Below are positions 52,705 through 61,416 of a stretch of 61,416 bases of DNA, one piece after another. The notes below the pieces were generated by a model. It did no database searches. It was not told the DNA's origin and saw nothing but the letters and a program-made list of their open reading frames with translations. Position numbers and translations under genes: made by a program. Location of the stretch: contig CACZMI010000005.1 of NCBI GenBank assembly GCA_902782245.1, positions 1 through 61,416 on the forward strand, read 5' to 3'. Within the stretch, counting starts at the first letter, position 1, and each line of letters starts with the position of its first letter. The DNA comes from an uncultured Bacteroidales bacterium. Lineage in GTDB: Bacteria > Bacteroidota > Bacteroidia > Bacteroidales > Bacteroidaceae.

Positions 52705-53715
52705 ATGCGAGTAGCAATTGTTGGAGCCAGCGGTGCTGTAGGACAGGAGTTCCTGCGTGTGCTGGAAGAGCGTAAATTCCCGCTCGATGAGTTGGTTTTG
52801 TTCGGGTCATCCCGTAGTGCCGGATCTTATTACACCTATGGCGGTAAGAAGATCCAGGTCAAGCTTCTTCAGCATAACGATGATTTCAAGGGAATAGACA
52901 TTGCATTCGTATCGGCCGGCGGCAGCACTTCCGAGGAGTTTGCCGAGACCATCACCAAGTACGGTGCCATCATGATTGATAACTCCAGCGCTTTCCGTAT
53001 GGATCCGCAGGTTCCTCTGGTAGTTCCCGAGGTTAACCCCGAGGATGCACTGGTTCGTCCCAAGGGCATCATTGCCAATCCTAACTGCTCAACCATCATG
53101 ATGATTGTGGCTCTTAAGGCTTTGAATGACCTTTCACCCGTCAAGAACGTGCAGGTATCTACCTACCAGGCTGCCAGCGGCGCCGGTGCAGCTGCCATGA
53201 AAGAACTTGAGGAGCAGTACCGTCAGGCCTTGGCAGGTGAGGAGGTAACCGTAAACAAGTTCGCCTACCAGTTGGCTTTCAATCTGATTCCCCATATCGA
53301 TGTATTCAAGGAGAGCGGTTATACCAAGGAGGAGGAGAAAATGTTCTATGAGACCCGCAAGATGTTCCACAACGACATCAAGTGCAGCGCTACATGCGTA
53401 CGCGTTCCTGCTCTGCGTTGTCACTCAGAGGCTATATGGGCAGAGACCGAGGAGCCTGTATCCGTTGAGGCTTTCCGTGAGGCTGTAAAGAACGGTGAGG
53501 GCCTTGTGCTGATGGATGACCCTTCAAAGAAAGAATACCCCATGCCTCTGTTCCTGTCAGGAACCGACCCGGTTTACGTGGGCCGTATCCGCAAGGACAT
53601 TGCCAATCCTAACGTGATGTGCTTCTGGATCGTGGGTGACCAGATCCGAAAAGGCGCCGCACTGAACGCCGTTCAGATAGCGGAATACCTGATAAAACAG
53701 GGAGTAGTTAAGTAA
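52705..53715 (+). CDS. asd: Aspartate-semialdehyde dehydrogenase
   Basis: Reduces aspartyl phosphate to aspartate semialdehyde, the branch point to lysine/DAP, threonine and methionine. The 336-residue protein starts with a Rossmann fold ([14 protein letters not shown]), has the catalytic Cys in NPNCSTIMM and [13 protein letters not shown], and His/Arg in [11 protein letters not shown]. It supplies the Ddh pathway at 21977. It ends at a terminator. Confidence 0.96.
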
Positions 53716-55982: not shown

Positions 55983-56366
55983 ATGCCAACAATTCAGCAG
56001 TTAGTACGCAAAGGACGTCAGGTCCTGGAGGACAAGAGTAAGTCTCCGGCCCTGGATTCCTGCCCTCAGAGAAGAGGCGTTTGCGTAAGAGTTTACACAA
56101 CGACACCTAAGAAGCCTAACTCAGCCATGAGAAAGGTTGCACGTGTCCGTCTTACCAACCAGAAGGAGGTTAACTCCTACATCCCCGGTGAGGGTCACAA
56201 CCTGCAGGAGCACTCAATCGTGCTTGTACGCGGAGGTCGTGTCAAGGACCTTCCCGGTGTACGTTACCACATCATCCGCGGTACACTTGATACCGCCGGC
56301 GTTAACGGTCGTCTCCAGAGACGTTCCAAGTATGGTGCAAAACGTCCTAAAGCAGCAAAGAAGTAA
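55983..56366 (+). CDS. rpsL: 30S ribosomal protein S12
   Basis: Decoding-site protein of the 30S subunit. The 127-residue protein starts [13 protein letters not shown] and has the conserved [11 protein letters not shown] and [12 protein letters not shown] loops. Lys at the streptomycin positions (KKPNS and RVKD) is unchanged, so no resistance mutation is seen. Asp in VKDLP is the usual methylthio site. First gene of the str/S10 cluster. Confidence 0.97.
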
Positions 56367-56466: not shown

Positions 56467-56943
56467 ATGAGAAAAGCAAAACCGAGAAAGCACGTCATCC
56501 TTCCGGATCCCGTATTCGGCGACGTTGCAGTGACCAAGTTCGTGAACCATCTCATGTACGATGGTAAGAAGAACACATCTTTCGAGATTTTCTACGAGAG
56601 TCTGGACAAGGTAAAGGCAAAACTTCCCAATGAGGAGATGTCTGCACTTGAGATTTGGAAGAAGGCTCTTGATAACGTAACTCCTCAGGTAGAGGTTAAG
56701 TCCCGCCGTATTGGTGGTGCTACTTTCCAGGTTCCTACTGAGATCCGTGCTGACCGAAAGGAATCAATCTCTATGAAGAACCTTATCTCATTCGCCCGCA
56801 AGCGCGGTGGCAAGTCTATGTCAGACAAGCTGTCAGCTGAGATAGTTGACGCATTCAACAGCACCGGTGGTGCTTTCAAGCGTAAGGAGGATATGCATCG
56901 TATGGCCGAGGCCAACAGAGCTTTTGCACACTTTAGATTCTAA
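56467..56943 (+). CDS. rpsG: 30S ribosomal protein S7
   Basis: A 158-residue protein from ATG 56467 ([19 protein letters not shown]); the in-frame TTG at 56422 falls in the leader hairpin and is rejected. The S7 pattern [38 protein letters not shown]-type block and [15 protein letters not shown] is complete. S7 organises the 30S head. Confidence 0.96.
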
Positions 56944-56956
56944 TTTATAACACTGC

Positions 56957-57997
56957 ATGGCAGATCAGGATTTACATCTCACGAGAAACATCGGTATCAT
57001 GGCTCACATTGATGCCGGAAAGACTACGACTTCAGAGCGTATTCTTTACTATACAGGTTTAACACATAAAATAGGTGAGGTACATGACGGTTCCGCTACC
57101 ATGGACTGGATGGTTCAGGAGCAGGAGCGCGGTATAACCATTACCTCAGCTGCCGTTACCACTCATTGGAAGTGGCAGGAAAACACATATAAGATCAACC
57201 TTATTGACACTCCGGGACACGTTGACTTCACAGCCGAGGTTGAGCGTTCACTCCGAGTTCTTGACGGTGCTGTTGCAGTATTCTGTGCAGTAGGCGGCGT
57301 ACAGCCCCAGTCTGAGACCGTTTGGCATCAGGCCAGCAAGTACGGCGTACCCCGTCTGGGTTATGTCAATAAGATGGACCGCTCCGGTGCTGACTTCTTT
57401 GGAGTCATCACACAGATGAAGGATATCCTTAAGGCTAATGCCTGCCCGATTGAAATTCCTATCGGTCAGGAAGAGTCTTTCAAGGGTGTTATAGACCTTA
57501 TTAAAATGAAGGCCATCTACTGGCGCGATGAGTCACTTGGTGCCGAGTATACCGTTGAGGATATACCCGCCGATCAGGTAGACGAGGCTCAGCAGTGGCG
57601 TGACAACCTTCTTGAGAAGGCTGCCGATTTTGATGACGAAATGATGGAGAAGTATCTTGAGGATCCTTCAACCATCACACAGGATGAGATTCTCCGTGCA
57701 GTACGCAAGGGTTGCATCAGCCAGAAGCTTGTTCCCGTTGTTTGCGGTACTTCTTTCCGCAACAAGGGCGTTCAGCCTCTGCTTGACTACGTTTGCGCAT
57801 TCCTACCTTCACCTATCGATTGCGGTGGTGTGGATGGTTTCCTGCCCGGTACGGATGAGCTCACACACCGTGATCCCCGTTCTGATGAGAAGACCGCAGC
57901 TCTTGCATTCAAGATCGCAGTTGATCCCTATGTAGGCCGTCTTATCCTGCCGGAAGCTACATCTTCAATACCCGTTCAGGTAAGAAGGAGCGCGTAA
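56957..57997 (+). CDS. EF-G N-terminal fragment (G domain and start of domain II)
   Basis: 346 residues from [19 protein letters not shown]. It holds the GTPase motifs G1 AHIDAGKT (16-23), G3 DTPGH and G4 NKMD. The last ~17 residues ([17 protein letters not shown]) are out of frame with EF-G. Without domains III-V it could bind GTP but not translocate ribosomes. Confidence 0.7.
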
Positions 57998-58011
57998 GCC
58001 GTCTCTTCCAG

Positions 58012-59043
58012 ATGTACTCTAAGAAGCAGATTCAGGTTGATGAGGTTGCTGCAGGTGATATAGGTGCAGTAGTTGCTCTTAAGGATATCCGTACCGGTGA
58101 TACTCTCTGCGATGAGACAGCACCTCTGGTACTTGAGAGCATGGATTTCCCGGATCCCGTTATCAGCATCGCTGTTGAGCCCAAGACCGAGAAGGATATG
58201 AGCAAACTCTCTGATGGTCTGGCACGTCTGGCCGAGGAGGATCCCACATTCACCGTTAAGGTTGATGAGGAGTCAGGACAGACACTGATCTCAGGTATGG
58301 GTGAGCTTCACCTTGATATTATTATTGACCGTCTGAAACGTGAGTTCGGCGTCGAGTGCAACCAGGGTCGTCCCCAGGTTAGCTACAAAGAGTCTATCTC
58401 ACAGACCGTTCAGCTCCGTGAAGAGTATAAGAAGCAGACTGGTGGTAAGGGTCACTACGCTTGCATTGTCGTTGAAATCGGACCCGCTGATCCCGATTGG
58501 AAGGGTGGACTTCAGTTCATCGATGCCACCAAGGGTGAGGCTCTGCCTAAGACCTACCTGCCTGCTATCGAGAAGGGTTTCATCAACGCTATGAAGAACG
58601 GTGTCCTGATGGGTGCTCCCATGGATTCGCTCAAGGTTACTGTTCTGGATGGTAAGTATCATCCGGTTGATTCCGATGCCCTCTCATTCGAGGTTTGCGC
58701 AACCAACGCGTTCCGTAACGCTTGCGTCAAGGCCGGTCCCGGTCTGACCGAGCCTATCATGGCACTTGAGGTTGTAACTCCCGAGGAGAGCATGGGTAAC
58801 GTTATCGGTGACCTTAACAAGCGTCGCGGTCAGGTTGAGGGTATGGAGACAAACCATTCAGGTGCTAAGGTCGTAAAGGCTCACGTACCCCTGGCAGAGA
58901 TGTTCGGCTACGTAACGGCTCTTCGTACAATAACTTCAGGTCGTGCTACTTCTTCAATGTCTTACGAGCGTCATGCCGAGGTATCCAAGGCTCTCGCACG
59001 TCAGGTTGTTGAGGAGCAGGGCGGAAACGTTTCACTGTTATAA
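58012..59043 (+). CDS. EF-G C-terminal fragment (domains II end to V)
   Basis: 343 residues from ATG 58012 ([16 protein letters not shown]), though the EF-G frame is open from about 57946. It contains [42 protein letters not shown] and the C-terminal [14 protein letters not shown], all normal for EF-G. There is no good ribosome-binding context for this ATG, and it lacks a GTPase domain. Confidence 0.7.
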
Positions 59044-59139: not shown

Positions 59140-59445
59140 ATGAGTCAGAAAATCAGAATCAAACTGAAGTCTTACGACCACAATCTCGTAGACAAGTCAG
59201 CCGAGAAGATCGTTAAGACAGTTAAGGCTACCGGTGCTGTAGTAAGCGGTCCTATTCCACTTCCCACACACAAGCGTATCTTCACTGTTAACCGTTCAAC
59301 ATTCGTAAACAAGAAGTCACGCGAGCAGTTCCAGCTCTCTTCATTCAAGAGACTGATTGACATCTACAGCTCAACTGCCAAGACTGTTGACGCACTGATG
59401 AAGCTCGAGCTCCCCAGCGGTGTTGAGGTAGAGATCAAGGTTTGA
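59140..59445 (+). CDS. rpsJ: 30S ribosomal protein S10
   Basis: A 101-residue protein of normal length ([20 protein letters not shown]). It has the S10 blocks [20 protein letters not shown] and [18 protein letters not shown]. It is in the 30S head and, in other bacteria, also the NusE antitermination factor. No tuf gene lies between fusA and rpsJ. Confidence 0.97.
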
Positions 59446-59496
59446 TAACCAAGTGAGTAAAACAAATTATTTACAGTAACTTAATTTATATTTGAA

Positions 59497-60114
59497 ATGC
59501 CAGGATTATTAGGAAAAAAGATCGGTATGACATCGGTCTTCGGTGCTGATGGAAAGAATGTTCCATGCACCGTTATCGAAGCAGGTCCTTGCGTAGTTAC
59601 TCAGATCAAGAGTGTTGAGAAGGATGGCTATGAGGCTGTTCAGCTCGGTTTCGAGGATGCAAAGGAGAAGAACACTTCTGCTCCTCTGATGGGACACTTC
59701 AAGAAAGCTGGTGTAACTCCCAAGAGACACTTGGCCGAGTTCAAGGATTTTGACGGTTCACTCAATCTGGGTGATGTAATTACCGTCGAGTTGTTCAACG
59801 ACGCAAACTTTGTTGACGTTGTTGCAGTATCAAAAGGTCATGGTTACCAGGGTGTTGTTAAGAGACACGGTTTCGGTGGCGTAGGTCAGCAGACCCACGG
59901 TCAGCACAACCGCGGTCGTAAGCCCGGTTCAATCGGTGCCTGCTCTTACCCTGCAAAGGTATTCAAGGGCATGCGCATGGCCGGTCACATGGGTAATGAG
60001 CGTGTGACTACTCAGAACCTCCAGGTTCTTAAGGTTATTCCGGAGCACAACCTCCTTCTTATCAAGGGTTCTATTCCGGGTTATAAAGGTTCAATCGTTT
60101 CAATTCTGAGGTAA
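59497..60114 (+). CDS. rplC: 50S ribosomal protein L3
   Basis: A 205-residue protein starting [16 protein letters not shown], with the conserved central loop [22 protein letters not shown] and [14 protein letters not shown]3 reaches toward the peptidyl-transferase centre. It overlaps rplD by one base. Confidence 0.97.
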
Positions 60115-60749
60115 TGGAAGTAAGTGTATTAAATATAAAAGGTGAGGATACCGGAAGAAAGGTAGTCCTTAACGATGCTATTTTCGGCATTGAGCCCAAT
60201 GATCACGCCATCTACCTGGATGTGAAGCAGTTCATGGCTAACCAGCGCCAGGGCACACATAAGTCAAAAGAGAGAAGTGAAATCAGCGGTTCAACCAAGA
60301 AACTGGGCCGTCAGAAAGGTGGTGGCGGCGCTCGTCGCGGTGACATCAACTCACCTGTATTGGTGGGTGGTGCACGTGTATTCGGTCCCAAGCCCCGTGA
60401 TTACAGCTTCAAGGTAAACAAGAAAGAGAAGCAGCTTGCCCGCAAGTCAGCTCTTTCATATAAGGTTCAGGAGAACGCTCTTATCGTAGTCGAGGACTTC
60501 AGTTTTGATGCTCCTAAAACCAAGAACTTTGTAGAAATCTTAAACAATCTTAAAGTTTGTGATAAGAAATCTCTGTTCGTCCTGCCCGAGAGCAATAATG
60601 TCGTAACTTTGTCGGCCCGAAATTTGGAGGGCACCAAGGTCGTCAACGCTTCATCAGTAAATACTTACAGTATCCTGAACGCTGACGCTCTTGTCGTGAC
60701 TGAGAATGCGATTAATGTCATCAACGGTATTTTAGATAAGGAGGCTTGA
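60114..60749 (+). CDS. rplD: 50S ribosomal protein L4
   Basis: A 211-residue protein beginning [14 protein letters not shown]. The exit-tunnel loop [20 protein letters not shown] is present with the basic residues near macrolide-contact sites unchanged. In E. coli L4 also represses its operon. It ends 2 bp before rplW. Confidence 0.96.
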
Positions 60750-60751
60750 TC

Positions 60752-61045
60752 ATGGGATATATAGTTAAACCCCTTGTAACGGAGAAAATGAACTCCATTA
60801 CTGAAAAGTTCCCCAACAGGTTCGGTTTCATCGTTCGCCCTGAAGCCAACAAACTGGAGATTAAGAAAGAGGTAGAGGACCTGTACAATGTCACTGTCGT
60901 TGATGTCAATACATCATACTACATGGGCAAGACAAAGTCCCGTTACACCCGCAGAGGTTTGTCAAAGGGCCAGGCTAACGCCTACAAGAAGGCCATTGTG
61001 ACACTTAAGGAGGGTGATACAATTGATTTTTATAGCAACATTTAA
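60752..61045 (+). CDS. rplW: 50S ribosomal protein L23
   Basis: A 97-residue protein from ATG 60752 ([17 protein letters not shown]), at the exit of the peptide tunnel where trigger factor and SRP bind. An in-frame TTG six bases upstream overlaps rplD and is rejected. [13 protein letters not shown] and [16 protein letters not shown] are typical. Confidence 0.96.
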
Positions 61046-61050
61046 TAAAG

Positions 61051-61416
61051 ATGGCAGTACGTAAATTTAAACCCACAACCCCGGGTCAAAGACACAAGAT
61101 TATTGGTACTTTTGAGGAGATTACTGCATCGGTACCAGAAAAGTCTCTTGTATTCGGAAAGCTCGCTACCGGCGGTCGTAACAACGACGGTAAGATGACT
61201 GCACGCTACATCGGCGGTGGTCACAAGCGCAAATTCCGTGTCATAGATTTCAAGAGAAATAAGGATGGGGTTCCGGCAACTGTCAAGACAATCGAGTACG
61301 ATCCGAACCGTTCGGCCCGTATCGCTCTGTTGTTCTATGCAGACGGAGAGAAGAGGTATATCATTGCACCTAACGGTCTTGAGGTAGGCGCTACACTGAT
61401 GTCAGGTGAGAAAGCA
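61051..61416 (+). CDS. rplB: 50S ribosomal protein L2, N-terminal part (cut by window end)
   Basis: The first 122 residues ([18 protein letters not shown]) match L2, with [27 protein letters not shown] and [22 protein letters not shown]. The rest, about 150 residues, lies past the end. L2 helps assemble the peptidyl-transferase centre. Confidence 0.95.

What the first reader, a model, noticed from the sequence alone, without database searches (positions are those of the whole stretch)
57938..57960. Apparent ~28-bp deletion splits the elongation factor G gene
Two EF-G halves lie in different frames. The 5' half is true EF-G through GRL, and the 3' half resumes at PAGSYIF in the next frame. Between GRL and PAG only two bases remain where EF-G needs about ten residues. 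The total length is short of a 705-codon gene by exactly 28 bases. EF-G is essential, so the window is either misassembled here or the genome has another fusA.
Basis: partly seen in the sequence, partly recalled or inferred. Interest (0 to 1): 0.8.

Follow-up and report, generated by a model that had tools for sequence, protein, structure and literature searches.

The report
Broken EF-G gene: likely assembly error
An essential protein-synthesis gene looks cut in two because 28 bases are missing, but the same draft genome lacks short pieces of several other conserved genes too, so this is most likely an ordinary assembly mistake and not biology.

Summary
fusA (window 56957-59043) is 2087 bp; its two closest relatives have 2115. 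Exactly 28 bp are missing after base 57946, which breaks the frame and removes ten residues of EF-G domain II. None of 29 relatives in the genus lacks them.

The window is a whole contig of a 98-contig draft genome (85.7% complete). The same genome has other private losses: 25 bp in ileS and 16 bp in an hpf/S30AE gene (frames broken), and 39 bp in EF-G2 (in frame). Sister assemblies have their own losses of 5 to about 115 bp in fusA, rplC, rpoC, rpoB, valS and ileS, some beside N runs.

No second canonical fusA was found in the assembled genome, only the EF-G2 paralog that 36 of 37 genomes of the genus show in whole or part.

Best reading: a local metagenome-assembly error of a published kind (PMC7111523, passages). 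No reads were available, so this is inferred, not shown.

The parts
56957..57946 (+). 5' part of fusA (EF-G): G domain and start of domain II, in frame
   Evidence: TIGR00484 positions 5-325; PF00009; aligned with the two closest relatives up to 57946 without a private gap
57946..57947 (+). junction where 28 bp present in 29 of 29 relatives are missing
   Evidence: no bases shared by the two ends of the gap, as read from the alignment
57947..59043 (+). 3' part of fusA: rest of domain II, domains III, IV, V, in another frame
   Evidence: TIGR00484 positions 337-689; PF03144, PF22042, PF14492, PF03764, PF00679; scanned from 57949
56957..57997 (+). ORF as it now reads: 346 aa, the last 16 out of frame
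58012..59043 (+). ORF as it now reads from its first ATG: 343 aa
55983..56943 (+). upstream neighbours 55983-56366 and 56467-56943, rpsL- and rpsG-like (names recalled from the sequence, not scanned)
   Evidence: open frames; no gap of 4 bases or more in them against G002
59140..61416 (+). downstream neighbours rpsJ-, rplC-, rplD-, rplW- and rplB-like (names recalled, not scanned); the contig ends inside the last
   Evidence: contig length 61416; no gap of 4 bases or more against G002

Best explanation
The 28-bp loss is a local assembly error in a draft genome from a community with many close relatives; the organism most likely carries an intact fusA. Shown: the loss is private; the same assembly has other private short losses in unrelated conserved genes, two of which also break frames; sister assemblies have the same kind of loss at other places; two sister genomes carry N runs at such places; and stretches of 300-460 bp in this operon are identical between genomes that stand for different species, which would tangle a short-read assembly. 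Inferred: that ends were joined across an unresolved gap and the bases between were dropped. Which sequencing and assembler made this genome is not known from any call.
For: Gap absent from 29 of 29 related fusA loci; 15 of 15 pattern hits in genome contigs have intact spacing (at least six of these contigs have the same length as contigs of the 29, so the two counts overlap). Other private losses in the same genome: ileS 25 bp, frame broken, present in 4 of 4 relatives compared, where the frame is 1164-1167 aa; hpf/S30AE 16 bp, frame broken, intact in the 4 relatives in which I found the gene among 5 stretches looked at, one of them (G020) differing by one mismatch over the other 800 aligned bases; EF-G2 39 bp, present in 3 of 3 compared. 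Sister assemblies: fusA 52 bp (G036), 60 bp in frame (G019) and an N run (G014); rplC 37 bp (G021); rpoB 52 bp (G021) and 41 N for about 61 bases (G014); rpoC 45 and about 70 bp (G036) and about 73 bp (G021); valS 16 bp beside 4 N and rpoC 5 bp beside 2 N (G022); ileS about 115 bp (G020). Identity to G002 of up to 464 bp in this operon. Selection has not visibly relaxed: against G002, base changes are 24 synonymous and 2 non-synonymous in the 3' part, 29 and 15 in the 5' part. PMC7111523 (passages) describes local assembly errors and suspects that they are prominent in IDBA-UD assemblies; PMC6785717 (passages) states that RUG rumen genomes came from idba_ud single-sample and MEGAHIT co-assemblies.
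Against: No reads were seen. The two ends of the gap share no bases, which an overlap error would usually leave; a scaffold join without N would fit. rpoB, rpoC, valS and gyrA of the same genome are intact. The reference genome G010 also lacks a few short pieces in or beside open frames, two of them frame-changing, so not each such gap need be an error of the window's genome. My idea that fusA is a chimera joined at the break failed its control: the divergent stretch before the break is also divergent in several other pairs.
Confidence: 0.93

Rival explanations
1. The loss is a real mutation in some cells of the population, and the assembler picked that variant.
For: The junction is clean and has no N. 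The gene shows no clear relaxed selection, which also fits a very recent loss.
Against: fusA is described as essential in Bacteroides thetaiotaomicron (PMC6989115, passages). The same assembly also has broken ileS and hpf frames.
Confidence: 0.04
2. The loss is real and a second EF-G carries the function: EF-G2, or a canonical copy in the unassembled part of the genome.
For: An EF-G2 gene over the NF058620 cut-off is present; the genome is only 85.7% complete.
Against: 36 of 37 genomes of the genus show EF-G2 in whole or part, also where fusA is intact, so it is no special back-up (the only match in G023 is its fusA). EF-G2 has DCPGS where EF-G has DTPGH in 4 of 4 genomes compared, and here lacks 13 residues. 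PMC6989115 calls fusA essential and fusA2 dispensable (passages). No other long fusA match in the assembly and no copy of the missing stretch.
Confidence: 0.02
3. The gene is expressed as two pieces, or by a recoding event such as frameshifting or bypassing.
For: Both halves are open and near-complete.
Against: Recoding could not supply the ten lost residues of domain II, which 29 of 29 relatives have. No relative aligned shows a split here.
Confidence: 0.01

Closest known systems
Local assembly errors and scaffold gaps in metagenome-assembled genomes (PMC7111523, passages seen)
   Same: Short wrong stretches in draft genomes that leave incomplete or incorrect coding sequences; N runs at such places in sister assemblies
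Canonical EF-G (TIGR00484)
   Same: Both halves match in order
   Different: 28 bp of domain II are missing and the frame is broken; neither half reaches the 659.4-bit cut-off alone
Bacteroides EF-G2 / fusA2 (NF058620; PMC6989115 passages; PMC10294740 passages)
   Same: A paralog of this family is on contig C58 of the same genome
   Different: It is a separate gene elsewhere, not the split one

Membership tests
Canonical EF-G gene (fusA) | EF-G domains in order, at the rpsL-rpsG-fusA-rpsJ place | tested here: met
   domain II is split and short; neighbour names recalled, not scanned
Canonical EF-G gene (fusA) | One open frame of about 705 codons | tested here: not met
   Frame broken by a 28-bp gap
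Local assembly error | Private to one assembly, absent from relatives | tested here: met
   0 of 29 relatives share it; 0 of 15 pattern hits, which overlap with the 29
Local assembly error | Similar losses elsewhere in the same assembly | tested here: met
   ileS, hpf, EF-G2
Local assembly error | Sequence at the junction not supported by reads | not testable with these tools
   No reads held
Real loss compensated by a second EF-G | A second intact canonical fusA in the genome | tested here: not met
   None found in the held assembly, which is 85.7% complete
Real loss shared by a lineage | Same gap in a close relative | tested here: not met
   0 of 29; no second genome of the window's own species was examined

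The most novel reading that the evidence does not exclude
The losses are real: this lineage has lost pieces of domain II in both of its EF-G paralogs (ten residues in EF-G, with the frame broken, and thirteen residues a little further on in EF-G2) and translates with a two-piece or otherwise rebuilt EF-G system.
Probability: 0.01. Interest if true: 0.9.

Novelty: not a real feature. Interest (0 to 1): 0.06.

Why it matters
As biology it does not. As a caution it does: a draft genome held as the one representative of a species can lack short pieces of conserved genes, here in four genes of one genome, and such breaks can be misread as gene loss, split genes or pseudogenes. If it were real, an organism without intact EF-G would be extraordinary.

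Tried and rejected
Second fusA: a domain search, a DNA search and a search for the missing stretch in the own genome gave only EF-G2 and one 44-bp match on C47. Shared break: no relative has it. Chimera joined at the break: mismatches to G002 cluster just before it, but several other pairs show more divergence in the same stretch, so I do not use this.

Rate control: in 116,350 aligned bases of this genome against G010, 13 gaps of 10 bases or more fell in an open frame of at least one of the two. Six change the frame: four lacking in this genome (fusA 28, ileS 25, hpf 16, and 17 bp at window 53713, which is open there only in the relative) and two lacking in G010 (19 and 44 bp, not followed up). 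Seven are in frame: two lacking in this genome (EF-G2 39 bp and one of 12 bp) and five lacking in G010. 23,788 of those bases came from pieces put in because a gap was already known there, so this is no unbiased rate. In the window, no other gap of 15 bases or more on the window's side was seen inside its open frames, against pieces of G036, G019, G021, G002 and G010 that leave parts of the window uncovered. G002's stretch did not hold the hpf gene.

Literature: paper searches on EF-G2 and on assembly errors; the EMBO J paper on EF-G2 is not held.

Full report
What is there. The window is the whole of contig C5 (61,416 bp) of a 2.51-Mb, 98-contig genome that is 85.7% complete with 4.2% contamination. 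Near its end lies fusA, 56957-59043, between rpsL/rpsG-like and rpsJ-like genes (names recalled; frames). Two frames hold the two halves of EF-G. Against the two closest relatives, at 95% and 94% identity, the gene is 28 bp short, and the gap follows base 57946. Ten residues of domain II, 331-340 of the G002 protein, are lost.

Is it shared? The held genus has 37 genomes; 31 have a fusA match at E 1e-100 or better. I aligned the window's gene with 29 relatives: none has the gap. Of the 29, one has its own 52-bp frame-breaking gap (G036), one its own 60-bp in-frame gap (G019), one a mis-sized N run (G014), and the other 26 are single frames of 705-720 codons. A scan of genome contigs with a pattern that allows both spacings returned 15 stretches, all with the intact 88-bp spacing; the tool notes that the window's own record may be left out, and at least six of the 15 lie on contigs of the same length as contigs of the 29. 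The 15 records are titled as uncultured Bacteroidales, Bacteroidaceae or Prevotellaceae genome assemblies, several from ruminant or horse samples.

Is the genome broken elsewhere? Yes. ileS on C7 lacks 25 bp that 4 of 4 relatives have; its open frame is 888 aa, shortened at the 5' end by the contig's start as well. An hpf/S30AE gene on C16 lacks 16 bp that are present in the 4 relatives in which I found it; in G020 the other 800 aligned bases differ by one. The EF-G2 gene on C58 lacks 39 bp, in frame, that 3 of 3 relatives have. The first 1.5 kb of C16 are 99.8-100% identical to G020; beyond that, identity varies from about 70% to 98%, and 14 and 39 bp are missing at the first step, beside a tRNA-Gly gene. 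rpoB, rpoC, valS and gyrA of this genome are intact.

Are sister assemblies broken too? Yes, at other places: rplC 37 bp in G021; rpoB 52 bp in G021 and 41 N for about 61 bases in G014; rpoC 45 and about 70 bp in G036 and about 73 bp in G021; valS 16 bp and rpoC 5 bp in G022, beside 4 and 2 N; ileS about 115 bp in G020. These were each measured against one reference genome; that the breaks are private rests on the full-length frames of most other genomes. gyrA was the clean control: 36 genomes with a gyrA match, 33 full length and 3 partial, none split within a contig (the only match in G028 is to a paralog). Three affected genomes have contigs equal in length to RUG records (G036 RUG14391, G019 RUG11955, G021 RUG10916). 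The RUG compendium says its genomes came from single-sample idba_ud assemblies and MEGAHIT co-assemblies (PMC6785717, passages). Which pipeline made the window's genome is not known.

Mechanism. A paper on curating metagenome genomes describes local assembly errors that leave incorrect coding sequences, and suspects that they are prominent in IDBA-UD assemblies (PMC7111523, passages). This operon is a natural trouble spot: runs of up to 464 bp are identical to G002. I infer that ends were joined across an unresolved gap and the bases between were dropped. The two ends of the gap share no bases, which suits a scaffold join better than a graph overlap. A first idea, that the gene is a chimera joined at the break, failed its control.

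Could it be real? Against G002 the 3' part has 24 synonymous and 2 non-synonymous base changes, the 5' part 29 and 15, so there is no sign of a long-dead gene. EF-G2 is no special back-up: 36 of 37 genomes show it in whole or part. It has DCPGS for DTPGH in 4 of 4 compared and itself lacks 13 residues here. In Bacteroides thetaiotaomicron fusA is described as essential and fusA2 as dispensable (PMC6989115, passages). A real genome would have to live without intact fusA and with a broken ileS frame at once. I put the assembly error at 0.93. What is missing is the reads.

Noticed in passing
G000 C58, L086 about 2328: EF-G2 of the same genome lacks 13 residues of domain II, in frame, a little downstream of the place lost in EF-G; probably another assembly error, the closeness probably chance.
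   Followed up: partly
G000 C7:2546 (L061): ileS lacks 25 bp and its frame is broken near the 3' end.
   Followed up: yes
G000 C16:804 and 1503-1512 (L105): An hpf/S30AE gene lacks 16 bp; 14 and 39 bp more are missing beside a tRNA-Gly gene. The first 1.5 kb of the contig are 99.8-100% identical to G020, the rest 70-98%: chimeric contig, contamination, recent transfer or strong conservation.
   Followed up: partly
L005 (G002), EF-G start: The G1 motif reads AHIGAGKTT; the two other proteins printed with that region (L021, L029) have AHIDAGKTT, as has the window.
   Followed up: no
L054 (G021), opposite window 59984: 37 bp missing in the rplC-like gene of G021.
   Followed up: no
L072 (G036), opposite window 52886: 30 bp missing, in frame, in the gene at 52705-53715.
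   Followed up: no
G018 C90:6534-9386: ileS match with one TAG inside.
   Followed up: no
window 53713: 17 bp present in G010 are missing at the end of the gene at 52705-53715.
   Followed up: no
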